64,000 bases of DNA from Microbacterium proteolyticum (GTDB lineage: Bacteria > Actinomycetota > Actinomycetes > Actinomycetales > Microbacteriaceae): positions 246,227 through 310,226 of the forward strand of contig NZ_JACHXY010000003.1 in assembly GCF_014192415.1 (NCBI RefSeq). The letters are read 5' to 3'. The notes beneath the pieces were generated by a model. The model had not been told where the DNA came from. It saw only the letters and a program-made list of their open reading frames with translations, and made no database searches. The position numbers were made by a program, and so were the translations under genes. Positions 5,601 through 25,621 of the stretch are shown one piece after another; the first letter of the stretch is position 1; every line of letters starts with the position of its first letter.

Positions 5601-6573
5601 CGTCGAGCGGGGCGGCGCAGGCGACGACCGTGGCCTCGGTGGGGCCGTACGTGTTCCACACCTCGCGCCCCTCGGCGACGAGCCGCGCGGCGAGTTCGGG
5701 CGGGCACGCCTCGCCGCCGAAGATCAGCAGCCGCACGTTCTCGATCGAGTCCGCCGGCCACATCGCCGCCAGCGTCGGCACGGTCGACACCACCGTGATG
5801 CCCTGGCGCAGCAGCCAGGGTGCCAGATCTTCGCCGGAGCGCACGAGCGACCGCGGCGCCGGCACGAGGCACGCCCCGTGACCCCACGCGAGCCACATCT
5901 CCTCGCACGAGGCATCGAACGCCACCGACAGACCCGCGAGCACGCGGTCGCCGGGGCCGAGAGGCTCCTGCTGCAGGAAGATGCGGGCCTCGGCCTCCAC
6001 GAACGCCGCGGCCGAACGATGCGAGACGGCGACGCCCTTGGGGACGCCGGTGGAGCCGGAGGTGAAGATGATCCAGGCGTCGTCGTCGACGGTGGGCGGG
6101 GCGACGATGGGCACCGCGTTGGTGCTCGGGTGGGGTGCGTCGCCGTCGTACAGCCGCACCAGGTCGGTATCCTGCGCGATGAACTCCCCCTCCCCCGCGA
6201 CGATGCCGCGAACGCCCGCCTCCCCGAACACGAGGCGGGCACGGTCGTCGGGATCGTCGGCATCGACGGGGACGTAGGCGGCACCGGCCGCCATCACGGC
6301 CAGGATCGACACGTACAGCTCTTTCGAGCCCGAGGGCATGCGCACGCCGACCCGGTCTCCACGGCGGACGCCCGCCTCGTGCAGGGCCGCCGCCGTCCGC
6401 CACACCCGCGCCAGGAGCTCGCGGTAGCTGAGGGCACCCGAGCCATCGTCGATGGCCGAGGCCTCCGGATGCCGCGCGGCGACGTCGGCGAGGAGGTCGA
6501 TGAGGGTGCGCGGAGGCGGCGCGGCACCGGTCCGATCGAGGGCAGCCTGGGGCTCGGGCACGGGGGTCGTCAC
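2635..6573 (-). CDS. Pls/PosA-family membrane non-ribosomal peptide synthetase
   Basis: 1312-residue single-module synthetase. An adenylation domain (about 25-510) carries the ATP-binding loop FTSGSTGVPKG, YGPTEA, and RSGDL. A carrier domain (about 525-590) has LGGGSLAAAQ with the phosphopantetheine serine near 552. The rest alternates hydrophobic helices with three soluble segments rich in left-handed beta-helix hexapeptide patterns (for example RIGADATVG and RIGRRAEIAPG). This A-T-membrane-tandem-domain layout and the length match epsilon-poly-L-lysine synthetase (Pls, about 1319 residues) and relatives that chain one amino acid or couple it to a polyamine. The monomer cannot be read by eye. 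It is followed by an overlapping M1 peptidase; a phosphopantetheinyl transferase lies beyond. Confidence 0.88.
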   Translation of the reverse strand: MTTPVPEPQAALDRTGAAPPPRTLIDLLADVAARHPEASAIDDGSGALSYRELLARVWRTAAALHEAGVRRGDRVGVRMPSGSKELYVSILAVMAAGAAYVPVDADDPDDRARLVFGEAGVRGIVAGEGEFIAQDTDLVRLYDGDAPHPSTNAVPIVAPPTVDDDAWIIFTSGSTGVPKGVAVSHRSAAAFVEAEARIFLQQEPLGPGDRVLAGLSVAFDASCEEMWLAWGHGACLVPAPRSLVRSGEDLAPWLLRQGITVVSTVPTLAAMWPADSIENVRLLIFGGEACPPELAARLVAEGREVWNTYGPTEATVVACAAPLDGSLPVRIGLPLDGWALAVVDAEGLPVAEGQVGELIIGGVGLARYLDPAKDAEKYAPMPTLGWDRAYRSGDLVRFEPEGLVFQGRADDQVKVGGRRIELGEVESALQDLSGVSAATVAVRTTEAGVPVLVGYLVMDEGVELDRGAARAALAERLPAATIPLLGVVDALPVRTSGKVDRAALPWPLPGVDAPAATDFTADESWLAEQWQAVLGLPVTERKTDFFDLGGGSLAAAQLVSRIRTRVPEFSVADIYDVPRLGAMAKALGPQLADEAPAKFHRAAPTPRSTQWAQTLLGAPLFILSGVRWLLYLLTASAILQLVPGFDVLPSVPWPVLGVGLLVFATPFGRMVIAVASARLLLADVRPGDYPRGGWVHIRLWLAEQIADQVDAVGLAGAPWVSYYARALGARIGRNVDLHALPPVTGMLEVGDGASIEPEVDLTGYWIDGDLVRIGEVRIGADATVGARSTLAPGTRIGRRAEIAPGSAVFGRVKADQSWAGSPAVRVGGTAKGWPSERPPAPTRWLWAYAASAVALALLPLAAFAVGGLVVAQGLRGADSLAEAAGRAFVWLVPGVAVTGLVFAASVVLLVRLLSIGLSEGTHPVRSRVAWQAWTIERLLDAARTILFPLYSSLFTPVWLRMLGARVGRDVEASTVLLIPSMARIEDGAFLADDTMVASYELRAGWLRIGPVRIGKRAFLGNSGMAAPGHRVPRDGLVAVLSAAPLKAKAGSSWLGSPAVRLRRLSAGVDDSRTYNPGPGLRLARTLWELCRFVPVVVTCGIGLGVLFTLATLWEATGPVWTLLLSGLVLLAAGAVAAGVSTAAKWAIVGVIRAGEQPLWSSFVWRTEVSDTFTEMVAAPWFARAASGTPALAVWLRTLGAKIGRGVWCDSYWLPEPDLVTLGDASTVNRGCVVQTHLFHDRIMSMDTVELEPGATLGPHSVVLPASTLGAHATVGPASLVMRGETVPVGSRWSGNPIGPWRAVKVRAYQSTT

Positions 6574-6623
6574 GGGGATGAACAGTACAGCGCTGAGGAG
6601 AACACCCCGGAATGGCTGGGCTG

Positions 6624-6645
6624 GTTCACCGCCCGTTCACCCGAG
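6624..6645 (+). promoter_or_regulatory. PHO box (PhoP-type direct repeat) upstream of pstS
   Basis: Two copies of GTTCACC begin at 6624 and 6635, exactly 11 bases apart (GTTCACCGCCC, GTTCACCCGAG). This is the arrangement of PhoP-binding direct-repeat units known from actinobacterial pst and phoA promoters. It lies about 95 bases before the pstS start, so phosphate-starvation activation by a PhoR-PhoP-type system is likely. No regulator gene is in the window. Confidence 0.75.
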
Positions 6646-6738
6646 GGGCGCATCCTCTTAAGGATCGCTGTTTAGCGTTCCCGGCGAGTCCCCACGGGGC
6701 TCACCTCACAGCTCCCGATATCCCGAAGGACTTTCATC

Positions 6739-7854
6739 GTGAAGATCACTCGCTTCGCTCAGCTCGGCGCGCTCACCGCCGTCGCAGCACTCGCCCTCGC
6801 CGGCTGCGCCGCGAACGAAGGCGGCGCCAGCACCGGCGGCAGCAGCAGCGACACCGGCTCGAACCTCTCGGGCGAGGTCGCCAGCGGTGGCGCGTCGTCG
6901 CAGGAGGTCGCCGTCCAGGCGTGGACCGCCGGATTCCAGACGGCCAACCAGGGTGTCACCATCACCTACGACCCCGCTGGATCGGGTGCCGGCCGCGAGT
7001 CGTTCCAGGCCGGGGCCTTCCCCTTCATCGGTTCGGACCGCGCGTTCAAGGACGACGAGATCGCCGCCGGTGGTTTCGGCGCCTGCGCCGACGGCTCGGG
7101 CATCATCGAGCTCCCCACCTACATCTCCCCGATCGCGGTCATCTTCAACCTCGAGGGCGTCGACTCGCTCAACCTCGACGCCGCGACCGTCGCGGGCCTG
7201 TTCACGGGCACCATCACGAACTGGAACGACCCGGCCATCGCCGCCCTCAACCCGGGCGTCACGCTCCCTTCCCTGGCCGTGACCCCGGTCCACCGTCAGG
7301 ACGACTCGGGCACCACCGAGAACTTCACCGACTACCTCTACCAGGCCGCTCCCAGCGTCTGGACGTCGGAGCCCGACGGCGAGTGGCCGCTCACCTCCGG
7401 TGAGGCCGCCAACGGCACCTCGGGCGTCGTCTCGGCCGTGTCGGGCGCCAACGGAACGATCGGCTACGCCGACGCGTCGCGTGCCGCTCAGGAGGGCCTG
7501 TCGACCGTCGCCATCAAGGTCGGCGACGACTTCGTCTCGTACTCGCCCGAGGCCGCTGCCGCGATCGTCGACGAGTCGCCGTTCGTCGAGGGCCGCGCCG
7601 ACGGCGACCTCGCCATCGAGCTCGAGCGCACCTCGCAGGAGGCCGGTGTCTACCCCATCGTCCTGATCAGCTACATGATCGCGTGCGAGCAGTACAGCGA
7701 CAACAACACGGCCTCGATCGTGAAGTCCTTCCTCGAGTACGTCGCGAGCGAAGAGGGTCAGACCGCCGCCGCCGACGCCGCGGGTAGCGCCCCCATCAGC
7801 GACTCGCTCCGCGAGCGCGTCAACTCGGCGATCGACCTGATCGTCACGCAGTAA
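6739..7854 (+). CDS. pstS: phosphate ABC transporter substrate-binding lipoprotein
   Basis: 371-residue phosphate-binding lipoprotein of the Pst high-affinity uptake system, anchored on the outer face of the membrane. The signal peptide ends in a lipobox (LALAGCA, Cys about 23), followed by a Gly/Ser-rich linker. Family features include YDPAGSGAGRESF, the IGSDRAF segment, TNWNDPAIAALNPG and HRQDDSGTTENF, which contribute to the phosphate pocket. GTG 6739 is chosen because GAAGGA lies about 8 bases upstream. It is the first gene of pstSCAB, preceded by a PHO box and separated from pstC by a strong hairpin that should let pstS mRNA accumulate over the permease genes. Confidence 0.95.
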   Translation: MKITRFAQLGALTAVAALALAGCAANEGGASTGGSSSDTGSNLSGEVASGGASSQEVAVQAWTAGFQTANQGVTITYDPAGSGAGRESFQAGAFPFIGSDRAFKDDEIAAGGFGACADGSGIIELPTYISPIAVIFNLEGVDSLNLDAATVAGLFTGTITNWNDPAIAALNPGVTLPSLAVTPVHRQDDSGTTENFTDYLYQAAPSVWTSEPDGEWPLTSGEAANGTSGVVSAVSGANGTIGYADASRAAQEGLSTVAIKVGDDFVSYSPEAAAAIVDESPFVEGRADGDLAIELERTSQEAGVYPIVLISYMIACEQYSDNNTASIVKSFLEYVASEEGQTAAADAAGSAPISDSLRERVNSAIDLIVTQ

Positions 7855-7865
7855 GACCCCCTGAG

Positions 7866-7901
7866 ACCCGGCCCGGAGCACACGAACGCTCCGGGCCGGG
7901 T
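7866..7901 (+). terminator. perfect 14-bp hairpin between pstS and pstC
   Basis: Bases 7866-7879 pair perfectly with 7888-7901 around an 8-base loop. No U-run follows. It sits inside the operon, 12 bases after the pstS stop, so it is more likely a partial terminator or 3' mRNA stabiliser for pstS than an operon end. Confidence 0.7.
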
Positions 7902-7933
7902 TCTCGCCCGTTCTAGACCCGAGACAGGACGAC

Positions 7934-8878
7934 ATGACCACCACCACGGCTCCGGCGCCACAGAAGCCGAAGCAACGCCCAGGAGACCGCGTCTTCTCGG
8001 GCACCGCCCTCTTCGCCGGCTCCATGATCCTCGTCACACTCGCCGCGGTGACGATCTTCCTCGTCGCCCAGTCGATCCCCGGATTCACCGCCACCAGCGA
8101 GAACGCCTCGATCCTGAGCAGCGACTTCTGGTCGTACGTGGGCCCCCTCGCCTTCGGCACGATCTGGGCGTCCATCCTCGCGCTCATCATGGCCGTGCCC
8201 CTGTCGGTGGGCGTGGCACTCTTCATCTCGCACTACGCGCCCCGCCGCCTGGCACAGGGCCTCGGATACGTCGTCGACCTGCTGGCGGCCGTCCCCTCCG
8301 TGGTCTTCGGCCTCTGGGGCATCCTGGTGCTCGCCCCGGCCATCCAGCCGGTCTACGCCTGGCTCAACACCAACGCGGGCTGGTTCCCGTTGTTCTCCGG
8401 AACGGTCTCGGCCACCGGCCGCACGATCCTGACCGCCGCCGTCGTCCTCGCGGTGATGATCACCCCGATCATCACCGCCATCTGCCGCGAGATCTTCCTG
8501 CAGACGCCCGTCCTCCACGAAGAGGCGGCACTCGCCCTCGGCGCGACGCGCTGGGAGATGATCCGCATGGCCGTCTTCCCGTTCGGTCGCAGCGGCATCG
8601 TGTCGGCGTCGATGCTCGGTCTCGGCCGCGCCCTCGGCGAGACCATGGCCGTCGCGCTCGTCCTCTCGGCATCCGGAGTCATCACGCTCCAGCTGTTCAC
8701 GTCCGAGAACCCCAGCACCATCCCCGCCAACATCGCCCTGACGTTCCCCGAGGCCTACGGCTTCAACGTCAACGTGCTCATCGCAACGGGTCTCGTGCTC
8801 TTCATCGTCACCTTCGCGGTCAATGCGCTGGCGCGCTACATCGTCAGCCGCCGCAAGGAATTCTCGGGAGCGAACTGA
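7934..8878 (+). CDS. pstC: phosphate ABC transporter permease
   Basis: 314-residue integral membrane subunit of the phosphate importer, forming the channel with PstA. Six hydrophobic helices are visible. The cytoplasmic coupling loop EEAALALGATRWEMIRMAVFP is the EAA motif that docks on the PstB ATPase. ATG 7934 has AGGA a few bases upstream. The gene ends 1 base before the pstA start, so translation of the two is probably coupled. Confidence 0.95.
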   Translation: MTTTTAPAPQKPKQRPGDRVFSGTALFAGSMILVTLAAVTIFLVAQSIPGFTATSENASILSSDFWSYVGPLAFGTIWASILALIMAVPLSVGVALFISHYAPRRLAQGLGYVVDLLAAVPSVVFGLWGILVLAPAIQPVYAWLNTNAGWFPLFSGTVSATGRTILTAAVVLAVMITPIITAICREIFLQTPVLHEEAALALGATRWEMIRMAVFPFGRSGIVSASMLGLGRALGETMAVALVLSASGVITLQLFTSENPSTIPANIALTFPEAYGFNVNVLIATGLVLFIVTFAVNALARYIVSRRKEFSGAN

Positions 8879-8879
8879 C

Positions 8880-9989
8880 ATGACCGCCACGTCCACTGCG
8901 CCGCGCACCCCGGCGACCGCGACACCCACGCGATCGACCAACAGCCTCACCAGCGGTCGCCTCCCCTCGTGGGCTCCGTGGGTGACCCTCGCCGGCAGCG
9001 CGGGCCTCTCGGCCCTGCTCCTGGGCATCGTCTCCCTCGCCTCGGACGCTCCGTTCAACATCGCGGGGTGGGCGGTCGTCGCGGCCGTCCTGTACCTGAT
9101 CCTGATCACCACCGCCTCCACGATCATCGAGGGACGACGCAAGGGCGTCGACCGCCTGGTGACGGGCGTCGTGGTCATCGCCTTCGGCATCGCCATGGTT
9201 CCGCTGGTCTCCGTGGGAGTCACGGTCGTCACCAACGGCGTGAGCGGCATCAGCGCCGAGTTCTTCAACTCGTCGATGCGCAACGTCGTCGGCGAGGGCG
9301 GAGGCGCCCTCCACGCGATCATCGGCACCGTGCTGATTACGCTGGCCGCCGCCGTGATCTCGATCCCGATCGGCATCTTCACCGCCATCTACCTGATCGA
9401 GTACGGCGCCGGAAAGCGTCTCGCGCACGCGATCACCTTCCTCGTCGACGTCATGACGGGCATCCCGTCCATCGTCGCGGGACTGTTCGCCTACGCCCTC
9501 TTCGCGCTCTTCCTCGGCCCCGGAATCCGCATGGGCATCATGGGCGCGATCGCTCTGGCGGTGCTGATGATCCCCGTCGTCGTGCGCTCGACGGAAGAGA
9601 TGCTGCGACTCGTCCCCAACGAGCTCCGTGAGGCGTCGTACGCGCTCGGCGTGCCCAAGTGGCTCACCATCAGCAAGGTCGTCCTGCCGACGGCCGTGGC
9701 CGGCATCACCACCGGTGTCATGCTCTCGATCTCGCGCGTCATCGGCGAGACGGCGCCCCTGCTGCTCACGGCGGGCGTGGCCACCTCGGTGAACTACGAC
9801 CTGTTCAACGGCCGCATGATGACGCTGCCGGTGTTCGCCTACTCCCAGTACATGAACCAGGGCATTCCCGCGACGGCCTTCATCGACCGTGCCTGGGGTG
9901 CGGCCCTGGTGCTCATCGTCATCGTCATGGTGCTGAACCTCGTCGCGCGCGCCGTGGCGAAGTTCTTCTCCCCCAAGCTCGGCCGCTGA
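8880..9989 (+). CDS. pstA: phosphate ABC transporter permease
   Basis: 369-residue second permease of the Pst system. It has an N-terminal extension of about 30 polar residues, two extra helices before the core, and the usual permease core with an EAA loop ([22 protein letters not shown]). The start is ATG 8880, directly after the pstC stop; an in-frame upstream start at 8823 lies inside pstC and is not needed. It is third in pstSCAB. Confidence 0.94.
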
Positions 9990-10029
9990 ACGCGGCACGT
10001 CGACCCGACCAGAAATCACCCGAGGAATC

Positions 10030-10809
10030 GTGTCCAAAAGCATCGAAGTAAACGACCTGAACGTCTACTACGGCGACTTCCTCGCTGTCGAGGGCGTGTC
10101 CCTCGATATCGAGCCTCGCACCGTCACCGCCTTCATCGGCCCCTCGGGCTGTGGCAAGTCGACCTTCCTGCGCACCCTGAACCGCATGCACGAGGTCATC
10201 CCCGGCGCGCGCGTCGAGGGCTCCGTGCTGCTCGACGGCGACGACCTGTACGGTTCGGGCGTCGACCCCGTGCTGGTGCGCCGCCAGGTGGGCATGGTGT
10301 TCCAGCGCCCGAACCCGTTCCCGACGATGTCGATCCGCGAGAACGTGCTGGCGGGCGTCAAGCTCAACAACCGACGCATCGCCAAGTCCGACGCCGACGC
10401 GCTGGTCGAGAAGTCGCTCAAGGGCGCCAACCTGTGGAACGAGGTCAAGGACCGCCTCGACAAGCCCGGTTCGGGCCTGTCGGGCGGTCAGCAGCAGCGC
10501 TTGTGCATCGCCCGCGCGATCGCCGTCTCGCCCGACGTGATCCTGATGGACGAGCCCTGCTCGGCGCTCGACCCCATCTCGACCTACGCGATCGAGGAGC
10601 TCATCGGCGAGCTGAAGAGCGAGTACACCGTCGTCATCGTCACGCACAACATGCAGCAGGCATCGCGCGTCAGCGACAAGACGGCGTTCTTCAACATCGC
10701 CGGCACCGGCAAGCCCGGAAAGCTCATCGAGTACAACGACACCTCCACGATCTTCACCACGCCGTCGGTGCAGGCCACGGAGGACTACGTCTCGGGTCGC
10801 TTCGGATAA
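10030..10809 (+). CDS. pstB: phosphate ABC transporter ATP-binding protein
   Basis: 259-residue ATPase that drives phosphate import on the inner face of the membrane. It shows Walker A (GPSGCGKST, about residues 37-45), the Q-loop, the signature [16 protein letters not shown], Walker [14 protein letters not shown] and the H-loop histidine in VTHNMQQA. Length is normal for PstB. GTG 10030 has CGAGGA upstream. A strong hairpin follows the gene and closes the operon; no phoU lies next to it. Confidence 0.96.
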
Positions 10810-10821
10810 GCGTCCATTCCG

Positions 10822-10849
10822 CGAAAGCCCTGCTCCGGCAGGGCTTTCG
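10822..10849 (+). terminator. rho-independent-type terminator after pstB
   Basis: Perfect 12-bp stem, 10822-10833 with 10838-10849, around the tetraloop TCCG. It lies 13 bases past the pstB stop and closes the pst operon. Confidence 0.8.
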
Positions 10850-10963
10850 TCGTTTCCGGATGCCGGACGCCCGCGCCGCGTCCGGATGCGCCGCGTCCGG
10901 GAGCGCCGCCCCCGGCGTCGCCTCACGCGCGCGCCCCTGCCCGGGGGCAGCGAGCGCACCGGG

Positions 10964-11848
10964 TCAGTCGCGAGGGCTCAGCAGGTAGGCGTTGAGCTCG
11001 TCGGTGAGGGTCCGGTCGACCGGGAGGACTTGCCCGTCGACCGCGCAGACCGGGGCAGCGAGACGCACGCTCGACAGCAGCCACGCGGCATCCGCCCCCG
11101 CCAGCTGGGCAACCGAGATCGTGGCGTAGTCCGCGGCGAAACCCCGCTGTTCGAGGTGCGCGAACACGCTCAGCTGCGTGGTTCCGTGCAGGATGCCGAC
11201 GCTCGGCGCGGGCGTGACGAAGCGCTCCCCCACGCGCAGGACGACGGATGCCGTGGGCGCCTCGAGCACGAAGCCGTCACTGCTGACGAAGACCGCGTCA
11301 TCGGCCCCGCGGCGCTTGGCCTCGCGGATGGCGGCCATGTTCGTCGCGTACGACAGCGTCTTGGCCCCGAGCAGCAGCCACGGAGCGCGAGCGGGCACGT
11401 CGAGGGCGTAGCCGCGGTCGAGAGTCGCCACGCGGACACCGTCGGTGCGCGCCGCCGCGTTGTCGGGCGCATCGGCGAGGGTGATCCACGCGGTCGGCGC
11501 GTCGGTCCCCTCGACGCCCCGGCTGAGCAGGAGCTTCATCACGTTCTCGCCCCGGCCAGCCTCACGGGCCACCATCACGATCGCCTCTCGCCATTGCGCG
11601 AGATTCGGCACGGGCAGATCGCACAGCTGGGCCGAATGGGCGAGGCGCTCCAGATGCGGCTCGACCTCTTGCGGGTGGGCGTCGACGACGCCGAGCGACT
11701 CGAAGATGCCGTCACCGCGTTGGGCGCTCAGCTCACCGACGGGGAGAGCGGGAGCGAACGGGTCGATCACGCGGAAGGTGTCGGCGAAGGACTCCCTTCG
11801 TTCGACGGATGCCACGGGGTCGATGCGGAGAGCGAAGCGCCAAGCCAT
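10964..11848 (-). CDS. class IV aminotransferase (aminodeoxychorismate lyase-like)
   Basis: 294-residue PLP enzyme of fold type IV, the family of 4-amino-4-deoxychorismate lyase (PabC), branched-chain and D-amino acid aminotransferases. QRGDGIFESLGV (about 43-54) is the typical N-terminal active-site strand. The PLP lysine is in GAKTLSYATNMAAIREA, and FVLEAPTASVVLRV and GILHGTTQ are phosphate-binding segments. PabC is the best guess because of overall resemblance, giving p-aminobenzoate for folate, but no other folate gene is adjacent and substrate cannot be told by eye. It faces the pst operon and shares no operon partner. Confidence 0.75.
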   Translation of the reverse strand: MAWRFALRIDPVASVERRESFADTFRVIDPFAPALPVGELSAQRGDGIFESLGVVDAHPQEVEPHLERLAHSAQLCDLPVPNLAQWREAIVMVAREAGRGENVMKLLLSRGVEGTDAPTAWITLADAPDNAAARTDGVRVATLDRGYALDVPARAPWLLLGAKTLSYATNMAAIREAKRRGADDAVFVSSDGFVLEAPTASVVLRVGERFVTPAPSVGILHGTTQLSVFAHLEQRGFAADYATISVAQLAGADAAWLLSSVRLAAPVCAVDGQVLPVDRTLTDELNAYLLSPRD

Positions 11849-11943
11849 GCAGCGAGCCTACGCGGCAGCCCCGACACGCCCGGCGCTTGTCAACGGGGCC
11901 GCGAGAGGGAATGACTCGCGCCTGCGCTTGTTACACTTTCCTA

Positions 11944-12139
11944 GCCGGGCCGCAGTAACCCCGGGCTCCATCTTTTGCCGCTCTGAGCGGCCATGCGCCG
12001 AGAGGCGTTCTGCGGTCCGGCACCCACTTCTTCAGTCCTCGCTGTGCGAGTCGCGCGCTGGATCTCTGGGCTGGTCGATCGGACCGGGAGCCGCCGTCAT
12101 CCGGTGCTCTGGGTCTTCCCTCCCGAGACCCCTCGCCAC
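11944..12139 (+). ncRNA. candidate structured RNA, possibly 6S/Ms1-like
   Basis: This stretch holds no gene but looks transcribed. A -10 box TACACT (11932-11937) has a weak ATGACT upstream. Downstream, distant segments pair in nested order: 11964-11969 (GGCTCC) with 12087-12092 (GGAGCC), and 12013-12019 (CGGTCCG) with 12080-12086. A small hairpin (11979-11991, CCGCT/AGCGG) sits in the one-sided bulge, and a 6-bp GGGTCT/AGACCC hairpin lies near the 3' end (from 12111). This gives a rod with a central bubble. It runs towards a convergent gene, as Ms1/MTS2823 does before Rv3662c in M. tuberculosis (from memory). The ends are estimates. Confidence 0.4.
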
Positions 12140-12140
12140 C

Positions 12141-12779
12141 TCAGGTCAGCGCGTCGCGTCGCCACAGAGCCGCGCACGCCGACAGGTCTTCAGCGTAGGT
12201 CGCCAGGCGCAGGGCCCGCGTCGTCAGCGCGCTCGCGCGCTCCGCCTCGGTGTTGTCGTAGTCGTCCGCGAGATGGGCGGAACCCGCCGCCTGCACGCGG
12301 CAGAAGGCGGCCGCACGATCGAGTGCCACGGCGAAGTCGCCCTCGAACAATCCCCGCAGGATCGTGTCGATGAGGCGCACCAGCTCCTCGGGCCCCGCAG
12401 GTGCCGGAGCGCCCGCCACGACGGCATCCACTGTCGCGATCTCGACCCGGCCGCGCTCGTACAGCAGCGCCGCGGTCGCCGCGTCGTCATGGATCATGAG
12501 CTGCAGCAGGTACAGCCGCCAGAGCGCGCCCGGGAGAGAACGGGCGGGCGAACGCGACCACAACTCCGCGATGTCGTCGATGCCGTGGTCGTCGGTGAAG
12601 GCGACGAGGCGCTCGACGACGTCGACCGAGGGATCAGCGCGAACGCGTGAGAGAAGTGCGGAGGCGGTGCTGTGGGCCACCCGCGAGACTTCGGCGGGGT
12701 CGTCCGCCGCGAAGAGACGATCGAAGAGTTCGGCGGGTCGCCGCACGGGCTTGTGGAACTCGCGTGAGGAATCGCTCAT
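12141..12779 (-). CDS. conserved protein of unknown function
   Basis: 212-residue soluble, helix-rich protein without signal peptide, membrane helix or a motif I recognise. The N-terminus reads EFHKPVRRPAELFDRLF, then a Ser/Ala/Arg-rich helix, a WRLYLLQLMIHDD segment and a Leu/Ala-rich C-terminus. It appears to be a family conserved in Microbacteriaceae; I recall relatives carrying the automatic label 'RNA polymerase subunit beta', for which nothing in the sequence speaks. It stands alone and converges on the candidate RNA at 11944-12139. That position recalls the gene beside Ms1 in mycobacteria, but homology was not tested. Confidence 0.65.
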   Translation of the reverse strand: MSDSSREFHKPVRRPAELFDRLFAADDPAEVSRVAHSTASALLSRVRADPSVDVVERLVAFTDDHGIDDIAELWSRSPARSLPGALWRLYLLQLMIHDDAATAALLYERGRVEIATVDAVVAGAPAPAGPEELVRLIDTILRGLFEGDFAVALDRAAAFCRVQAAGSAHLADDYDNTEAERASALTTRALRLATYAEDLSACAALWRRDALT

Positions 12780-12856
12780 TCATCCAGGCTAGGCGGTCTC
12801 CCACCGCCAGGGGGTCGGGACCACTCCCCCGGAGGGGCCCACGTCGAGCGGCCGCG

Positions 12857-18530: not shown

Positions 18531-18606
18531 GGGCCTGTAGCTCAGTTGGCAGAGCATCGGACTTTTAATCCGCGGGTCGAGGGTTCGAGCCCCTCCGGGC
18601 CCACCA
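18531..18606 (+). tRNA. tRNA-Lys (anticodon UUU)
   Basis: 76 bases including an encoded CCA end. The acceptor stem GGGCCTG pairs with CGGGCCC (one G-U), the anticodon loop is CTTTTAA with anticodon TTT, and the T arm is GGGTTCGAGCCCC. Its 3' half doubles as the end of a serine recombinase gene on the minus strand, so it is the insertion site of the island to the right. Confidence 0.97.
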
Positions 18607-19876
18607 GACTTGTCTTACTCGAACAAATTGCCTTGAGATAAAGGTTGCTCGGGGTGGAGTCCAGGGCGTCAGCGGAATCGCTGGCGCTCTTTGCGTGTGT
18701 GGCCGCCCATGCGGTAGCTGCTTCTTGGATCAACGCGATGGGCTCGTGCACCTGGCCCTGAGCGCGCACCTGGTGGAACTCATCATCGATCCAGAGGACC
18801 GAAAAAAAGGCCTCAAGAATGCGCCGTTTGATCGGTTCGGACGCGGAGACGTAGAAGCTGTACGGGCGCTCAAGCAGATCGAGGTATGCCAGGACTAGAT
18901 CTGCGTGCCGCTGGACCTGTTCATCGGAGCGCGCGAGCTTGTCGATGAGGGTCCGACGCTGCACGGCGAGGGCACGCAGCCGGGCTTTGACGGCTTCCGC
19001 GGCCAGCTCTCCATCTGCGGCGATATCGAGCAGATTCGACTCCTGCACTTCGAGCTTCTTCAGCTGTGCTGCCAGTCGAGCTCTGGCCTCTCGCTCCCCC
19101 TGTTGCTGCACGGTGAGCGCGTCATGCACATGGCGCCTCATCTCGGCAGCAAAGCCCGGGTCAAGCCTCAGTCCGCGCACTTCCCGAGCAACGGCGCGCT
19201 CAACTTCCTTGACTGGAAGGTGCGGAAGATCGCATGTCGCGTCCTGGCGGCCGCGACACAGGAAGTATCCGTAAAGGCCGCCCTTCCCGTTGTTCGTCTC
19301 GGTGTAGATCATTCGGTGCTCCCGCCCCGCTTCGCGACACCGATCGCAGCACATCAGCCCCCGCAGAAAGTGTGCATGAACTTGGTCTCGCTGCGTCGGC
19401 CTCCTGCGAGCAGCAAGCACCTCCTGAACGCGCTCGAAGGTCTCCGCCGAGACGAGTGCTTCGTGACGCCCGTCGAACACCTGGCCCTTGTAGGTCACCA
19501 TCCCGAGGTAGTAGGGGTCGCGGAGAAGCAGGCTGAGTTGGTTCAGCGAGAGCGGACCTTCCTTCCACTTCGCCGTCGGACGAGTCGTCAGGCCTTGCTC
19601 TGCAAGCTGCTCGCGGAGAACCGACATGCTGTACTCCCCCGTCGCGTATTGCTCAAAGGCCCACCGGATGAGCGGAGCCCGCTGAGGATCGATATCGATC
19701 GTGTTCACCAGACGTCCGTCGAAGTCCCTGCGCACGTTGAGGTAGCCGATCTTGGCCCGACCGGTGGTCCCGCCGCTCATCGCCTTGTGGAGCATCTTCT
19801 GCTTAATGTCCTCGCCGCTCTGCCGGACTTGGACTTCGTTCATGATGTCCGTGACGGCCTCCATGGCATCGGCCAT
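18542..19876 (-). pseudogene. serine recombinase, catalytic domain lost
   Basis: 444 codons of a large serine recombinase. Present are the end of the catalytic-domain helix (MADAMEAVTDIMNEVQVRQSGEDIKQKM), the Recombinase domain (SGGTTGRAKIGYLN to about residue 145), a zinc-ribbon with CCDRC and later CRGRQDATC cysteines, and a coiled-coil tail. Missing are the first 130 or so residues with the nucleophilic serine; the sequence abuts the IS3 element instead. The C-terminal tail (VGPEGLEPSTRGLKVRCSAN) is read from the antisense strand of tRNA-Lys and the stop lies inside that tRNA, which marks integration there. It is certainly inactive as it stands. Confidence 0.9.
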
Positions 19877-19913
19877 GTAAGGGCGTGAGGAACGAACTGG
19901 TGACAGGTTCGGT

Positions 19914-20789
19914 TTAGGCCGCGAGTGTGAGCGGCTCGGTTAGCTTGGCTTCGAATTCGATGGGCGTCAACCCGCCGAGGGTGTCCTGGGCTCGCTGTCG
20001 GTGATACTTCCGCTCGATCCAGACCACGATCGCCAGGCGCAGCTCCTGCCGCGTCACCCATCGCTGCTGGTTGAGCACGTTCGTCTGCAGCAGTGACCAG
20101 AAGCTCTCCATGGCCGCGTTGTCCCCGGCGGCGCCGACTCTGCCCATCGATCCGACCATGTCGTGACGGCGCAGCTCACGGGCCATCGCCCTGCTCCGAA
20201 ACTGGCTGCCCCTATCGGCATGCAGGATGCAGCCGGCGACCTCACCGCGGCGTGCGATGGCGTTGCGGACGGCGTCGACGGCGAGCTTCGCGGTCATCCG
20301 GTCGCTGATTGAGTATCCGACGATCCGGTTCGAGAACACGTCTTTGATCGCGCAGCAGTAGAGCTTGCCCTCGCTCGTCCAATGCTCCGTGATGTCCCTG
20401 AGCCAGACCCGGTTCGGTGCATCGGCGCGGAACTCGCGCTGGACGTGGTCGTCGAACACCGGCGGGCCGGCCTTCTTGCCCTTCCCGCGTCGGCGACGCT
20501 GCGCGGAGGAGAGGATGCCGGCCTGCGAGCACAGCTTCCACGCCGTCCGTCGACTCATCCGCCACCCGGCCCGACGAGCTTCGTCAGCGAGGTATCGGTA
20601 TCCGAACGTCGGGTCGTCGTGGTGCGCGTCATGCAGCGCGTTGATCCGATACGCGCGGAGCACGTCCGCGTCCCGCACCGGATCGTTCCGCCACCGGTAG
20701 TAGGGCTGGCGAGCGAGCTTGAGAACCCGGCACGACACCGTCACGGGAATCCCCGCATCGGCGAGCTCAGCTACGAGCGGGTACGTCAT
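19914..20789 (-). CDS. IS3-family transposase OrfB (DDE integrase)
   Basis: 291-residue catalytic subunit. An N-terminal HTH_21-like region (ALHDAHHDDPTFGYRYLADEAR) is followed by the rve integrase core. The acidic triad is visible in RVWLRDITEHW, ILHADRGSQF and NAAMESFWSLLQ, with the typical C-terminal LGGLTPIEFE. It looks intact. The ATG overlaps the orfA stop (AAAATGA), so it may be made by re-initiation or by slippage on the A-run as an OrfAB fusion. Confidence 0.93.
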   Translation of the reverse strand: MTYPLVAELADAGIPVTVSCRVLKLARQPYYRWRNDPVRDADVLRAYRINALHDAHHDDPTFGYRYLADEARRAGWRMSRRTAWKLCSQAGILSSAQRRRRGKGKKAGPPVFDDHVQREFRADAPNRVWLRDITEHWTSEGKLYCCAIKDVFSNRIVGYSISDRMTAKLAVDAVRNAIARRGEVAGCILHADRGSQFRSRAMARELRRHDMVGSMGRVGAAGDNAAMESFWSLLQTNVLNQQRWVTRQELRLAIVVWIERKYHRQRAQDTLGGLTPIEFEAKLTEPLTLAA

Positions 20790-21124
20790 TTTGGGGAGCC
20801 ACCGAGTTTCAGATTCGCCTGCGACAGATACGCCGCCGCACGGCGGAGAACTTCGTTCTCCTGCTCGAGCAACCGAATCCGTTTCTTCAACTCACGAGCT
20901 TCCGCCGCGTCCGCAGCGGTCTGACCGGGGCGGTTGCCGTCCTCGACATCGGCCTGGCGGAGCCAGTTCTGCAGCGTCGCCTCGCTGATACCGAAATCCG
21001 CGGCGATCTGCTTGATGGTGACGCCGCTCTCACGACGTCGCGCGACCGCGATGACGTCCTCGCGGAACTCTCGGGGATATGGACCGGGCATGATGACATC
21101 CTCCCCGCCAGCACCTCCCGGCAC
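20786..21124 (-). CDS. IS3-family transposase OrfA
   Basis: 112-residue DNA-binding subunit. The helix-turn-helix (about 25-50: SGVTIKQIAADFGISEATLQNWL) recognises the IS ends, and a leucine-zipper-like coiled coil (ELKKRIRLLEQENEVLRRAAAYL, about 75-97) serves oligomerisation with OrfB. It is intact and overlaps orfB by 4 bases. The start is ATG 21124; an in-frame ATG at 21091 could also serve. Confidence 0.9.
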   Translation of the reverse strand: MPGGAGGEDVIMPGPYPREFREDVIAVARRRESGVTIKQIAADFGISEATLQNWLRQADVEDGNRPGQTAADAAEARELKKRIRLLEQENEVLRRAAAYLSQANLKLGGSPK

Positions 21125-21173
21125 TAACGATCAGTTGTCACCAATTCGTTCCTCACGCCCACCGGGGTTTTTC

Positions 21174-21218
21174 TGGCCGCGATGACAGGATTTGAGCCTG
21201 GGACCCCTTGACCCCCAG
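21174..21218 (-). repeat. tRNA-Pro(GGG) 3'-half remnant
   Basis: Read on the minus strand, 45 bases run from the anticodon arm (CTGGGGGTCAAGGGGTC) through a T arm (GCTCAAATCC) to a degenerate acceptor end GCGGCCA. Against the actinobacterial tRNA-Pro(GGG) sequence I remember, about 41 of 45 positions agree. The 5' half is absent, so it is not a working tRNA. Such 3' fragments are normally left by an element that integrates into the matching tRNA gene. It lies between the IS and the large nuclease-like gene. Confidence 0.65.
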
Positions 21219-21243: not shown

Positions 21244-24200
21244 TCACGTCAGGTCTCCCATATCCTGCTCGATGACCTCACCGCATTCAGTAAGAGCGAC
21301 AACGAACTGAGACGCCGTGAGCACCTCATACGGGCGCGAAATCCAGTAGCCTGCTGGCGTCAGATGGCGAGTGACGAAGCGCGTCTGAAGCACGTGGGCG
21401 CCGTGCTCCGGCAGTGGCTCGAGGCCGAGCATCGTCGCTACATTTTCAACGTAGGGCTTCAACTCGGATTCCTTGCGCGCGAGCTGAGTGGCGTAGCAAG
21501 GCTTGATCTTGCCCTTGTTTTCCAAATCGCTGTAGAAGGTCCGTAACTGGCGCGCGGTCTCCGCAAAGCCATAAACGGATGCTGGGTCCTTCGCCTCGAT
21601 CAGCCAGATGTTTGGATCGCCACTACGCCCGCAAACGAGGTCAACTTCTGTCGTTAGCTCCGGGACGCCAAGGCGACCGTGGTCGCCAGGCTTCACGCGC
21701 GCGATGGTCTTGAACCCGGCTTCTTGTGGCTGCCGCTCAAGTGTCCGCTCGAACGTCTTGTTCCTCGCCGATCGTCTCTCAGCGAGGGCCCTCGACACAT
21801 CGTCCGGCACCTCGCCGGTCCAGGGAAGAACGCCCTGTGTCAGGTGATTGTTGTAGACACTCAGGGTCATCAGGAGATATTGCGGAGCGATCAGGATCGT
21901 GGCATCCGGACGCCGTACAAGCGGTTGGACCAGGAGACGATGCCTGCGGGTGCGGGTTTGCCACGGCTCCCAACTGCTGGATCGCAGGATGTCTGCGGAC
22001 ACCGTGAGCATTTGAAATGCGCGCCGGAGACGCGACCGCTGCTCTTCGTTGGGATCACCGGCTGCTTCAAAGACCCAGTTGAGAGCCTCGTCCTCTGAGG
22101 CAAATGTGATGCTTCTGCCCTCGTCGAATGAATCCCACTGAGCGAGTGCCATCAAAACTACGAAGAGATCGGAAGTGGACGCGCCGAAGGATTCCAGCAT
22201 CGCTGGGTCAACGGCATCCTCAAATGCTCCTGTGCCTGCCTCGTCGTCATCGAGTACCGGGCCGAGGCGGACAGCGGCTGCCGCCGTGTTGAGGGAGCCC
22301 CCTTCCAACACCCATGAGCCATCAGTGACCTGCTCGTCATCCTTGAATGTGAGCTCGTACGCCGAGCTGATCTCGATGACCGCCGGAGCAACCCGATGAT
22401 GCAGCCGCTCGCTCAACGTCGTCATCGTGCGATATGCATCTGCGGCCGCTAGGAGCGCACTCCAGCTGTGAGCCGTAACAGGCTGTTGCCCTCCGACACC
22501 CAAATCCAATCTCAATGCGGCTTCGACGATGATCTCGTTGCACTGCCGTAGTTCGAGCGTTTCGCTGGCGAGCTCGGCCATGCGGGCGACTGGGTCCCAC
22601 TCCGTGCTGAGATTCTGGGCGACGCGGGTCAGGTTGCCCTGTTCATCTTGGAGGTGGTCATACACACGATTAAGTTGCTCCATCCCCGTAGCGACGATCA
22701 CATCGACGTCGTGCATGGCGATTCGATCGTTGAGGTGCTCCAGAGCTGCGGGCGCGAGATGTGTTCTGACTAGCGCATTGGCTTCGAACCCACCGTACGC
22801 GCCGGGTTGTACGCCCGTTGCGTGAAGGCGACGGGCGAAGGATGCAGTTGTCGCTGATTCGTCAGACGGGCTCAGCTGCCACGGCCTAGGCAGGTGGTTG
22901 AGCTTGGTTCGGGCGGTCTTCGTCTCGAGTATGAGGAATGGTCGGCAGGTGAGCCATTCGCGTCCGATCTCTTGCGCAACGCTCTCAGTGACGCCGCCGT
23001 ACACAAGAAGCTGTTCGAGGGCGTCTGCTGTAAGCGCATTGGCTGCGAAGAGCTTACCGTCCGCCTCCTGCACGAAATTCTCCACGTCAAGACTCCAGAG
23101 CGCGACCCGCGGAGCACCTTCGGTTTGACTCCGCAGCGATGAGAACTCGACCACTTCATCGCCTCGCTCAACTGCCCGGAGCCAGAGTCGGTATCCGCGG
23201 GTTCCGAGGCCTTCGTGGGCCTGCCGCCACCAGTCACCGATTGCATCAAACGCGAAGATGAGGCCTCCACAGACGTCGAACAGGAACCGATACTCCTGCT
23301 CGTCTGTCCAGTCCGGGTCGGACCTAACGATTGCGATCGGAGGCGTGATCAGAGGCAGGGACCAGCCGATGCGGTCCGGGGCATGGTGGGTTCCCCGTCG
23401 GTAGTCGTATTCGCTCTCTGCGGCAAGAAACGATACGGAAGCGACATTGCCGGATGAGATTTCGGCCATCTCCGCGTGCCGCAGCGACGGTAGGCCCGTT
23501 CCATGAAGCGCAACTTCTAATCTCGAGAGAGCGACCGCGCGCTCCCACTCTGCATCTCCCGCGTGCGCCTCGAAGTACATGTGTGTTGGGCTGATCCCGC
23601 CCTTGAAGAATGTTTTGTCGTTCGTCCTCCACGGTTCCCAGTAGTTGATTGCTTCCCAGCCGAAGCTGGACGGGAACTCCGGTGAGCTCAGGTCACGAAC
23701 GAATCGATACAGGTCGTCTTTCGCCGTCGCTGTCTCCGCAATCCAGGTGAGATCTTCCAACGCGAGGGTCGCTTGGCCTGGAACCTGCGGAGCCATCAAA
23801 TGGGAGGTGCCTGCGACGATGACAAGCGGTACGACGCTTGCACCGGGGAGCAGTTCGATGGTGCCACCGCCAGCGATCTGCGCCGAGAGCGGGCCGTCGG
23901 TGGGGGCATGGTCCCGGACGCGGTCTGCGAGCGTTACGCACGCTGGTGACGACGGCCCTGTTCTGGGAAGGTCTTCTGTGAAGAGGATCGACACCGCGAT
24001 GAAATTGGGTCCGTCGACAGGAACGAGCCACTGGCTTGCGTTCCCAGTCAGCGGAAGCGTCTCATCGCGCACCTTGGGCGGTGCCTCGATCAATGCATCC
24101 GAGAACCGCCAGAGTGCGCCGCGGATCGCATCAATGCAGGAGGCCCGGAGCGCTCGCCTGGCATGGTTATCACGTTTAAGGCCCTCAACAAGATCCGCGA

Positions 24201-25017
24201 CCGCGTGAGCAAGCACTTCGGGGACATAGGTCGGTGGCAACCATCGGTAGCGCGGGTCAGCAGTCGGAAGGCGATAACGCAGAGTTCGTCCAAAGGGACT
24301 CGTGCGACTCTCGTGGTCGTACTTCGCCGAGATCGCTGGTGAGGTCATCCACTCAAGCGCGAGCAGGTCGGCTTGGTCGAGTCGGAGCGACTCAAGCGGG
24401 TCCGTGGACACGAGCCTGCCGGCGGCGTCCAGCTCATTAGCAGGAAGGGTGATTTCATCGCCAAGTTCGATGTCCGGAGCCGGTTGCCACTCCGGCAACA
24501 GAGCGTCCAGGCAGTGGTCCACGTACCTGAGCGCTACTCGGACGACGTTGGCGATGCCGAACTTGTGCCGCCGCATAAGTCGGTCGTCTACCGCGTCGGC
24601 CAGGCGCAGAGCCCGTGAGAGGTCGGCTATTGGCCTCTCGACCAAACCTGGCACGTAGCGAAGCAGTTCGTCATCAACTCGGACAGTAGCAACATTGGTG
24701 GTGTCCGTCGGGACGTAGTCCTCGTGCATGACACCGATGCCCTTGGAATGAGCCGCCGTATCAATCAGCTCCTGCGCATCGGGGAGAGGCGCGCTTGAAC
24801 GCTCGGGGGAAACGGAGGTCGCGCTGAGGCTGGCAGCGAGCGCCGCGCCGATCGATGTGGTTCGATGACGGGCAGACGGGGACGAGGCTGCCGCGAATAA
24901 CATGGTCCACAGCTGGTCAGGGTCGAACCGACAATAGGCTTGCGCAAGTTCATCGAGTTCGGGCGCCACGGGCTTGGCTTGAGCGCGCTTCGGCTTTCTC
25001 GCTTTGCTTCGCCCCAT
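21244..25017 (-). CDS. large protein of unknown function with C-terminal nuclease-like domain
   Basis: 1257 residues from ATG 25017, chosen over an upstream ATG (25086) because TTGGAGG lies 6-7 bases before it. The N-terminus is basic (GRSKARKPKRAQAK). I recognise no domain in the first 1080 residues and no Walker motif, signal peptide or membrane helix. Near the C-terminus, FERTL (about 1090), TEVDLVC (Asp about 1126) and WLIEAKD (Glu 1141, Lys 1143) form the E...D...ExK pattern of PD-(D/E)XK nucleases, close to the NERD/Mrr style. It is the only sizeable cargo of the island and has lower GC than its flanks. A role in defence against phage or plasmids is inference. Confidence 0.7.
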   Translation of the reverse strand: MGRSKARKPKRAQAKPVAPELDELAQAYCRFDPDQLWTMLFAAASSPSARHRTTSIGAALAASLSATSVSPERSSAPLPDAQELIDTAAHSKGIGVMHEDYVPTDTTNVATVRVDDELLRYVPGLVERPIADLSRALRLADAVDDRLMRRHKFGIANVVRVALRYVDHCLDALLPEWQPAPDIELGDEITLPANELDAAGRLVSTDPLESLRLDQADLLALEWMTSPAISAKYDHESRTSPFGRTLRYRLPTADPRYRWLPPTYVPEVLAHAVADLVEGLKRDNHARRALRASCIDAIRGALWRFSDALIEAPPKVRDETLPLTGNASQWLVPVDGPNFIAVSILFTEDLPRTGPSSPACVTLADRVRDHAPTDGPLSAQIAGGGTIELLPGASVVPLVIVAGTSHLMAPQVPGQATLALEDLTWIAETATAKDDLYRFVRDLSSPEFPSSFGWEAINYWEPWRTNDKTFFKGGISPTHMYFEAHAGDAEWERAVALSRLEVALHGTGLPSLRHAEMAEISSGNVASVSFLAAESEYDYRRGTHHAPDRIGWSLPLITPPIAIVRSDPDWTDEQEYRFLFDVCGGLIFAFDAIGDWWRQAHEGLGTRGYRLWLRAVERGDEVVEFSSLRSQTEGAPRVALWSLDVENFVQEADGKLFAANALTADALEQLLVYGGVTESVAQEIGREWLTCRPFLILETKTARTKLNHLPRPWQLSPSDESATTASFARRLHATGVQPGAYGGFEANALVRTHLAPAALEHLNDRIAMHDVDVIVATGMEQLNRVYDHLQDEQGNLTRVAQNLSTEWDPVARMAELASETLELRQCNEIIVEAALRLDLGVGGQQPVTAHSWSALLAAADAYRTMTTLSERLHHRVAPAVIEISSAYELTFKDDEQVTDGSWVLEGGSLNTAAAAVRLGPVLDDDEAGTGAFEDAVDPAMLESFGASTSDLFVVLMALAQWDSFDEGRSITFASEDEALNWVFEAAGDPNEEQRSRLRRAFQMLTVSADILRSSSWEPWQTRTRRHRLLVQPLVRRPDATILIAPQYLLMTLSVYNNHLTQGVLPWTGEVPDDVSRALAERRSARNKTFERTLERQPQEAGFKTIARVKPGDHGRLGVPELTTEVDLVCGRSGDPNIWLIEAKDPASVYGFAETARQLRTFYSDLENKGKIKPCYATQLARKESELKPYVENVATMLGLEPLPEHGAHVLQTRFVTRHLTPAGYWISRPYEVLTASQFVVALTECGEVIEQDMGDLT

Positions 25018-25168
25018 GCCAGCCTCCAAGTCGACGTGCAGCAGTCCCACACGATTAGGTTTGGTCACTAGCGCCTGACACGTCATTCAAGCGCGGCCAC
25101 CACGGCGTGGCTCTTCGCAAGCATTACTGATCGACGGCGGGCGGTCAACGAAGCCGGTGAAGCCGACC

Positions 25169-25621
25169 CTACCGACCAGGACGCGGACGCAGCCTGACGC
25201 CCTCCGCCTTCAGCACACGATGAACGGCGCCGAAGCTGGAGCCAAGCTCGACTGCAATCGGTTTGATGGCGAAACCCTCTTCATAGAGCTGCACCGCGCG
25301 AGCCCGTTGCGTCTTGGTCAGTGGCTGACGACGCATCTGCACGTCACGATCGTGAAGCAGCTCGAGGAGACTCGGCTTCGAGATGCCGAACCGCTTGGAC
25401 AGGGCCGGCGTGCCAAGACCCCATCGGTACAACTCTACCAACTCTGCAACCTGCTCGTCGCTCAGACGGCGGCGGATCAGCCACGAGCGACCAGTTTCGT
25501 CCAGGTCAGTATCGGGATCTGCAGGCACGACCGCGGCGAGTTCAGCCAACTTCTGCAGTTTTTCCAGAGGCGGGAGCAGCCCTCTTGATTTTTTAGAGGC
25601 TGGCCCTACCGTGCCCACCAC
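25169..25621 (-). CDS. small HTH DNA-binding protein (start uncertain)
   Basis: About 120-150 residues. Two consecutive homeodomain-like helix-turn-helix units are visible: LSDEQVAELVELYRWGLGTPALSKRFGISKPSLLELL and LTKTQRARAVQLYEEGFAIKPIAVELGSSFGAVHRVL. Proteins of this kind often accompany serine recombinases and resemble the HTH tail of resolvases. No ATG is available; GTG 25528 lacks a ribosome site, and the GTG pair at 25618-25621 sits exactly where the island seems to end. The original 5' end may therefore have been lost at the junction. The frame stays open further right only by running into host DNA. Confidence 0.5.
   Translation of the reverse strand: MVGTVGPASKKSRGLLPPLEKLQKLAELAAVVPADPDTDLDETGRSWLIRRRLSDEQVAELVELYRWGLGTPALSKRFGISKPSLLELLHDRDVQMRRQPLTKTQRARAVQLYEEGFAIKPIAVELGSSFGAVHRVLKAEGVRLRPRPGR

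What the first reader, a model, noticed from the sequence alone, without database searches (positions are those of the whole stretch)
21244..25017. Large island protein with an isolated C-terminal PD-(D/E)XK-like nuclease: candidate single-gene defence system
The only sizeable cargo of the island is a 1257-residue protein with lower-GC DNA than its flanks and an excellent ribosome site. By eye the first 1080 residues match no family I know and contain no NTPase motif. The end carries FERTL, TEVDLVC and WLIEAKD, the E-D-ExK pattern of restriction-like nucleases. Big single proteins with such a tail on recombinase-borne islands are often phage or plasmid defence factors. The nuclease pattern is seen; the defence role is inference.
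Basis: partly seen in the sequence, partly recalled or inferred. Interest (0 to 1): 0.72.

Follow-up and report, generated by a model that had tools for sequence, protein, structure and literature searches.

The report
Divergent Upx-like antiphage nuclease on island
A very large single protein on a mobile island in an actinobacterium turns out to be a distant, so far unlabelled relative of Upx, a bacterial anti-virus protein that most likely cuts DNA when a virus attacks.

Summary
An intact 1257-residue gene (21244-25017, minus strand, good ribosome site, G+C about 0.61 against about 0.70 in the flanks) ends in a PD-(D/E)XK-type nuclease; D1126 and K1143 are kept in 25 of 25 aligned proteins. 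It is not family-less: over at least its last two thirds it is homologous to Upx, a catalogued antiphage protein. Evidence: profile-profile E 3.6e-22, against 0.16 or worse in 20 shuffles and one reversal; Foldseek's only hit below E 0.001 is 9WUF, 'Cryo-EM structure of Upx', 1.8e-15; VIA-align Z 20.2 over 510 residues. PADLOC and NCBIfam Upx models barely see it, and a tree gives it its own well-supported clade. Relatives are patchy, sit at different sites, and several lie beside defence genes: Avs3, DRT4, PifA-like, ApeA-like, Cas7/Cas8c. The island occupies a tRNA-Lys hotspot; a tRNA-Pro attachment remnant behind the gene indicates that it came from another island. Its serine recombinase lacks a detectable catalytic domain. 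Best reading: single-protein, NTPase-free sensor-nuclease. Defence activity itself is untested.

The parts
21244..25017 (-). Upx-like protein, 1257 aa, intact single gene
   Evidence: ORF; homology; dN/dS 0.15-0.18 against three close relatives
21298..21972 (-). C-terminal nuclease module, about residues 1016-1240: conserved R1024 and P1032, then E1090, D1126, E1141, K1143
   Evidence: nuclease folds (AF1548, XisH, Hjc, FokI, Card1/Can2) align to about model residues 1045-1200 at Z 6-9
21301..23082 (-). Region (residues 646-1239) that superposes on solved Upx 9WUF residues 657-1270, Z 20.2, 510 aligned
23614..24312 (-). Possible inactive restriction-nuclease-like lobe, about residues 236-468 (tentative)
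   Evidence: VIA-align Z 7.5-7.9 to Nt.BspD6I and R.BspD6I2 over residues 282-468, below the level the tool calls trustworthy; profile self-comparison gave no support
25023..25027 (-). Ribosome-binding site GGAGG
   Evidence: sequence
21181..21218 (-). Remnant of a tRNA-Pro attachment site 25 bp behind the gene (38 bp, 94.7% to the tRNA-Pro 3' end)
   Evidence: perfect 43-bp and 40-bp direct repeats of the tRNA-Pro end in L022 and L019
18531..18606 (+). tRNA-Lys(TTT), left border and integration site
   Evidence: flank homology to two sister genomes ends at 18606-18607
18542..19876 (-). Serine recombinase remnant: Recombinase and zinc-ribbon domains, no Resolvase domain found; the tool's ORF overlaps the tRNA gene at its 3' end
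19886..21155 (.). IS3-type insertion sequence (orfB 19914-20789, orfA 20786-21124; type recalled from the two-ORF layout), inverted ends, no target-site duplication visible; exact ends approximate
25169..25600 (-). Small helix-turn-helix protein (HTH_58/resolvase-type HTH); the tool's ORF runs to 25924, real start uncertain
   Evidence: sequence
25604..25620 (.). Right border of the island: flank homology resumes at 25604 (G1298) or 25614 (G1360); by eye a degenerate copy of the tRNA-Lys end

Best explanation
The gene encodes a deep-branching member of the Upx superfamily: a single, NTPase-free antiphage protein of about 1250 residues. Its large N-terminal and middle body most likely detects an infection-specific partner (a phage protein or an unusual DNA form) and holds the C-terminal PD-(D/E)XK domain inactive. 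On detection the domain cuts DNA, using the metal-binding set E1090/D1126/E1141/K1143. The gene travels as a self-contained cassette between tRNA-integrating islands. Shown: the gene, the nuclease residues, homology to Upx, purifying selection, location on a variable island, defence neighbours of several relatives. Inferred: antiphage activity, sensing by the body, inhibition before infection, and whether phage DNA or all DNA is cut.
For: Profile-profile match of the window clade (12 rows) to the Upx clade (5 rows): probability 99.5, E 3.6e-22, 799 collinear columns; a third clade (8 rows) matches both nearly full length, E 5.7e-73 and 3e-27. Controls: 20 column shuffles and one reversal gave E 0.16 to 0.89; four of five unrelated neighbour proteins gave 0.15 to 0.74, the fifth 0.0015 at probability 16.9. 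PDB sequence search with the window-clade profile: 9wuf_A 8.4e-6, collinear, next 0.089. Foldseek: 9WUF E 1.8e-15, next 0.21. VIA-align: Z 20.2, next 8.8. D1126 and K1143 25 of 25, E1141 24 of 25. dN/dS 0.15-0.22 in seven pairs. Avs3a and Avs3b directly upstream in L020 and L022; DRT4 and PifA-like KAP in L020, ApeA-like in L019, nSTAND3-Mrr in L025, Cas7 and Cas8c in L034. In Deinococcus QL22 an Avs2-like gene directly precedes a Upx-clade gene.
Against: Curated Upx models hardly recognise it: PADLOC 19.2 bits over 150 of 1271 positions, NCBIfam 17.7 bits against a cut-off of 1900; but a Bosea protein with 283 bits fails that cut-off too. The window-clade profile A1 did not find the Upx-like gene of G455 in a six-frame genome search. 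The window-to-Upx profile alignment starts only at column 420; the N-terminal third is linked only through the third clade. The structure model is weak (mean pLDDT 54.2) and Foldseek's TM to 9WUF is 0.33, rmsd 29 A. Neighbour enrichment was not shown to be significant, and no defence neighbour was identified in several loci. No activity data. Two of 12 relatives from the named-genome scan are broken.
Confidence: 0.78

Rival explanations
1. It is a restriction enzyme in the classical sense (type II or type IV) that cuts incoming DNA by its sequence or modification state, with no infection-specific sensing.
For: PD-(D/E)XK domain; the PDB entry 9wuf names its molecule 'Restriction endonuclease'; FokI and McrBC chains are among lower-ranked fold matches. 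One relative, L021 (itself broken), has a type I methyltransferase (HsdM) about 7.5 kb away.
Against: Apart from that HsdM, no methyltransferase match was seen among the neighbours scanned, only a weak cross-hit of the IS orfA (0.027); but only part of the neighbouring ORFs was scanned. No Walker A motif of the kind McrBC-type enzymes need.
Confidence: 0.2
2. It is an accessory of Avs-type STAND sensors and needs such a partner.
For: Avs3a and Avs3b directly upstream in L020 and L022, Avs2-like gene upstream of a Upx-clade gene in Deinococcus, weak Avs4-like neighbour in L027, STAND-like NTPases in L023 and L025.
Against: No STAND gene was seen in the window's island; in L019 the upstream gene is ApeA-like; only about 40-60 bp upstream of the start are shared between the window and L019, L020 and L022, so the gene seems to move alone.
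Confidence: 0.1
3. It is a decaying passenger on a dead island and no longer works in this strain.
For: Recombinase without detectable catalytic domain, an IS beside it, a degenerate attachment remnant; two relatives are broken, one by an in-frame stop and one by a frameshift.
Against: The window ORF is intact with ribosome site and all four catalytic residues; dN/dS 0.15-0.18 against three close relatives.
Confidence: 0.12
4. It is a housekeeping DNA-repair or recombination nuclease.
For: The nuclease domain alone resembles Hjc-type resolvases at Z 5.8-6.8.
Against: Patchy: 4 of 299 (family), 6 of 394 (class) and 4 of 396 (phylum) genomes, the window's own included each time; variable sites; no Pfam match.
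Confidence: 0.02

Closest known systems
Upx (PADLOC PDLC02221; NCBIfam NF042954; PDB 9WUF)
   Same: Length about 1240-1270, collinear homology over at least the last two thirds, C-terminal E-D-ExK nuclease
   Different: Separate clade with full support; BLAST identity 24-26% to two of the five Upx-clade proteins and no BLAST match at 1e-3 to the other three; far below the curated Upx cut-off
Shedu (SduA) single-protein nuclease (recalled)
   Same: Works-like comparison only: one protein, PD-(D/E)XK nuclease, no NTPase (recalled)
   Different: The PADLOC scan with E up to 1 gave only Upx
Card1/Can2 ligand-gated nucleases
   Same: Nuclease domain fold aligns at Z 6.6-6.8, a level the tool calls common for unrelated folds
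   Different: No CARF match in Pfam or PADLOC for this protein

Membership tests
Upx superfamily | Collinear homology beyond the nuclease domain | tested here: met
   hhalign E 3.6e-22 over columns 420-1270 with shuffled controls; 9wuf sequence match at profile positions 724-1175; VIA-align model residues 607-1200
Upx superfamily | Homology of the N-terminal third | tested here: inconclusive
   Window clade to third clade and third clade to Upx clade both nearly full length, but no direct window-to-Upx alignment before about column 420
Upx superfamily | C-terminal E...D...ExK residues | tested here: met
   22, 25, 24 and 25 of 25
Upx equivalog (NCBIfam NF042954) | Curated score of 1900 bits | tested here: not met
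   17.7 bits; so it is not filed as a Upx equivalog, only as a relative
Upx (PADLOC model) | Match over most of PDLC02221 | tested here: not met
   150 of 1271 model positions, E 3.8e-5
Upx superfamily | Antiphage activity | not testable with these tools
   needs phage challenge
Shedu | SduA-type domain | tested here: inconclusive
   No Pfam match at E up to 1 and only Upx in PADLOC; such models may be insensitive at this distance

The most novel reading that the evidence does not exclude
The Upx superfamily is built around two restriction-nuclease lobes in one chain: an active C-terminal lobe and an inactivated N-terminal one (about residues 236-468) that was turned into the DNA- or phage-sensing part, so that one polypeptide mimics a heterodimeric enzyme such as R.BspD6I. 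The actinobacterial clade seen here would be a so far unlabelled branch of this architecture.
Probability: 0.3. Interest if true: 0.6.

Novelty: new variant of a known kind. Interest (0 to 1): 0.42.

Why it matters
The PADLOC and NCBIfam Upx models hardly see this clade, and the PADLOC model missed the three Streptomyces-plasmid relatives that were scanned, so the spread of Upx-type defence in Actinomycetota may be underestimated. The window gives a defined clade with conserved catalytic residues that can be set beside the solved Upx structure to find which body residues are shared (mechanism) and which vary (recognition). The step from a tRNA-Pro island to a tRNA-Lys island is a clear example of a likely defence gene moving between islands as a unit.

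Tried and rejected
N-terminal lobe as a duplicate of the nuclease: a secondary hhalign hit (columns 1058-1177 against Bosea 213-312, E 0.0013, probability 18.4) suggested it, but profile self-comparison of residues about 120-420 against the C-terminal part in five alignment/reference pairs gave probability 0.3% or less. It is kept only as the novel case, on a fold hint of Z 7.5-7.9. BFVD search of the model: best E 0.017, nothing used. Relatives in viral contigs: three scans, none confirmed; phage records: no match.

Natural two-gene split: the two-piece copies in G164/L029 and L021 suggested it, but L029 has a frameshift at a run of G and L021 an in-frame stop. Intact relatives exist.

Neighbour enrichment: of the loci at hand, 13 were used (near-copies L024, L026, L028, L030 left out; plasmid loci and L033, L039, L040 not used), five nearest predicted ORFs of at least 150 aa each. 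These 65 proteins hit 44 PADLOC families at E 1e-20 (25 shown); 40 of 41 window ORFs outside the island hit 3. The output counts families, several of which can name one protein, and the controls' hits include cross-hits such as mad3, which also hit an L035 ATPase, so no p-value is claimed. The RmrA hits were not traced; two guessed proteins were not it.

Literature: searches in the open-access library gave no title on a Upx mechanism or structure; listings only, most papers not opened. PMC10855318 (one table passage seen) lists Upx under nuclease activity; PMC12629846 (two passages seen) places Upx in a Pseudomonas island hotspot; PMC13367071 came up for Gao_Upx and a word search in it found no Upx. 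The original description (Gao et al. 2020) is not held and is recalled.
Full report
What is there. The window carries an intact 1257-residue gene on the minus strand (21244-25017; the tool's ORF reaches 25086). The shorter start is the likely one: the close relatives share it, and GGAGG precedes it. The gene is lower in G+C than its flanks. Pfam has no match for it at E up to 1. By pattern it has no Walker A or DEAD motif.

Relatives. Genome samples give 4 of 299 (family), 6 of 394 (class) and 4 of 396 (phylum) genomes with a match, the window's own counted each time. A scan of named species genomes gave 12 loci (66 stretches matched a pattern, 15 were confirmed): eight Microbacterium, three Arthrobacter, one Leucobacter, at 50-88% identity. 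Large Streptomyces plasmids carry more distant relatives.

Identity. PADLOC's only hit is Upx, weak, at residues 1016-1164; NCBIfam's is the Upx equivalog model at 17.7 bits against a 1900-bit cut-off. A protein in G455 is Upx-like by the PADLOC model (6.2e-26 for a partial ORF) and matches window-clade proteins by BLAST (9e-6 from the window, 2e-10 to L025), although the window-clade profile did not find it in a genome search. Profiles of three clades (I: window, 12 rows; II: Streptomyces plasmids and two genomes, 8 rows; III: Upx, 5 rows) were compared. I-II: E 5.7e-73; II-III: 3e-27; both nearly full length. I-III: 3.6e-22 over 799 columns, 420-1270. Twenty column shuffles and one reversal of clade III gave 0.16 to 0.89. 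Of five unrelated neighbours four gave 0.15 to 0.74 and one, a STAND-like protein, 0.0015 at probability 16.9. A PDB sequence search with the window-clade profile gives 9wuf_A (8.4e-6, 724-1175 to 735-1202), the next entry being 0.089. The predicted model (residues 40-1239, 14 rows, mean pLDDT 54.2) hits 9WUF, 'Cryo-EM structure of Upx', with Foldseek E 1.8e-15, the next hit being 0.21, though with TM 0.33 and rmsd 29 A; VIA-align gives Z 20.2 over 510 residues of the C-terminal half. A maximum-likelihood tree of 25 proteins separates clades I and III with full support; clade II is poorly supported (72/48), and the program warns of long branches, mostly in clade III. I therefore file the protein in a Upx superfamily and not as a Upx equivalog.

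Nuclease. E1090, D1126, E1141 and K1143 are kept in 22, 25, 24 and 25 of 25 proteins; R1024 and P1032 are kept in 25 of 25. The domain aligns with AF1548, XisH-type, Hjc, FokI and Card1/Can2 nucleases at about Z 6-9. Selection: dN/dS 0.15-0.22 in seven pairs; the nuclease part changes least in four of the seven, but in the three pairs with the window it is not the most conserved part.

Neighbours. L020 (Leucobacter) and L022 (Microbacterium Leaf151) have full-length Avs3a (1080.7 and 1091.6 bits) and Avs3b directly upstream. L020 adds a PifA-like KAP NTPase, DRT4 and a nucleotidyltransferase. L019 has an ApeA-like HEPN protein. L025 has an nSTAND3-Mrr protein. L034 has Cas7 and Cas8c. L021, whose copy is broken, has a type I methyltransferase about 7.5 kb away. 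L027 has a weak Avs4-like match and L023 a weak IetA match. In Deinococcus QL22 an Avs2-like gene precedes a Upx-clade gene; in Bosea the annotated neighbours include helicase, TIR and caspase genes. Not every locus shows this: I identified no defence neighbour for L029, L036, L037 or L038, for L035 only an ATPase that matches mad3 and LmuB and may be a cross-hit, and the Streptomyces plasmid neighbours were seen only as annotated, mostly hypothetical.

Mobility. Flank homology with two sister genomes ends at 18606-18607 and resumes at 25604-25614. The same tRNA-Lys site holds 3.6 kb in G1298, with a 39-bp direct repeat, and about 10.4 kb in G1360; the latter includes a Tmn-like protein. In L022 and L019 the tRNA-Pro 3' end is repeated perfectly (43 and 40 bp) just behind the gene, and tRNA-Pro lies upstream, so there the gene sits at the right end of a tRNA-Pro island. 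The window keeps a 38-bp, 94.7% remnant of that tRNA-Pro site right behind the gene, and shares only about 40-60 bp upstream of the start with L019, L020 and L022. The simplest account is that the gene and its right end came from a tRNA-Pro island and now lie in the tRNA-Lys hotspot. The window's recombinase has no detectable Resolvase domain and an IS3-type element without visible target duplication lies beside it, which suggests an adjacent deletion (inference).

Mechanism. Shown: nuclease residues, homology to Upx, selection, location on a variable island. Inferred: the body senses infection and gates the nuclease. Whether phage DNA or all DNA is cut is open. A possible second, inactive nuclease-like lobe rests on Z 7.5-7.9 to BspD6I subunits; the profile test did not support an internal duplication.

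Noticed in passing
L029 12790-12880; L021 12880-13060: Two relatives are broken close to the body-nuclease junction: M. suaedae by a frameshift at a run of eight G (sequencing error or phase variation possible), Arthrobacter MYb229 by an in-frame stop.
   Followed up: partly
window 21181-21218: Degenerate tRNA-Pro attachment remnant inside a tRNA-Lys island, evidence of cargo transfer between islands.
   Followed up: yes
L064 (G1360) 4081-12829: The same tRNA-Lys hotspot in a sister genome holds a Tmn-like protein and a second large protein with a weak PD-Lambda-4_A match.
   Followed up: partly
L041 3481-11427: Deinococcus QL22 plasmid: Avs2-like gene directly upstream of a Upx-clade gene.
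   Followed up: partly
L045-L050: Streptomyces large plasmids carry a further Upx-like clade that the PADLOC model missed in the three members scanned (L045, L046, L048).
   Followed up: partly
window 25169-25600: Small HTH protein with matches to the HTH_58 and HTH_Cbp1 models (the latter far below its cut-off), next to the right island border.
   Followed up: no
L043 5965-9678: In the Bosea Upx-clade protein the N-terminal lobe has a LEAK (ExK-like) stretch at the place where the other aligned members have none, a hint of a once active second nuclease lobe.
   Followed up: partly
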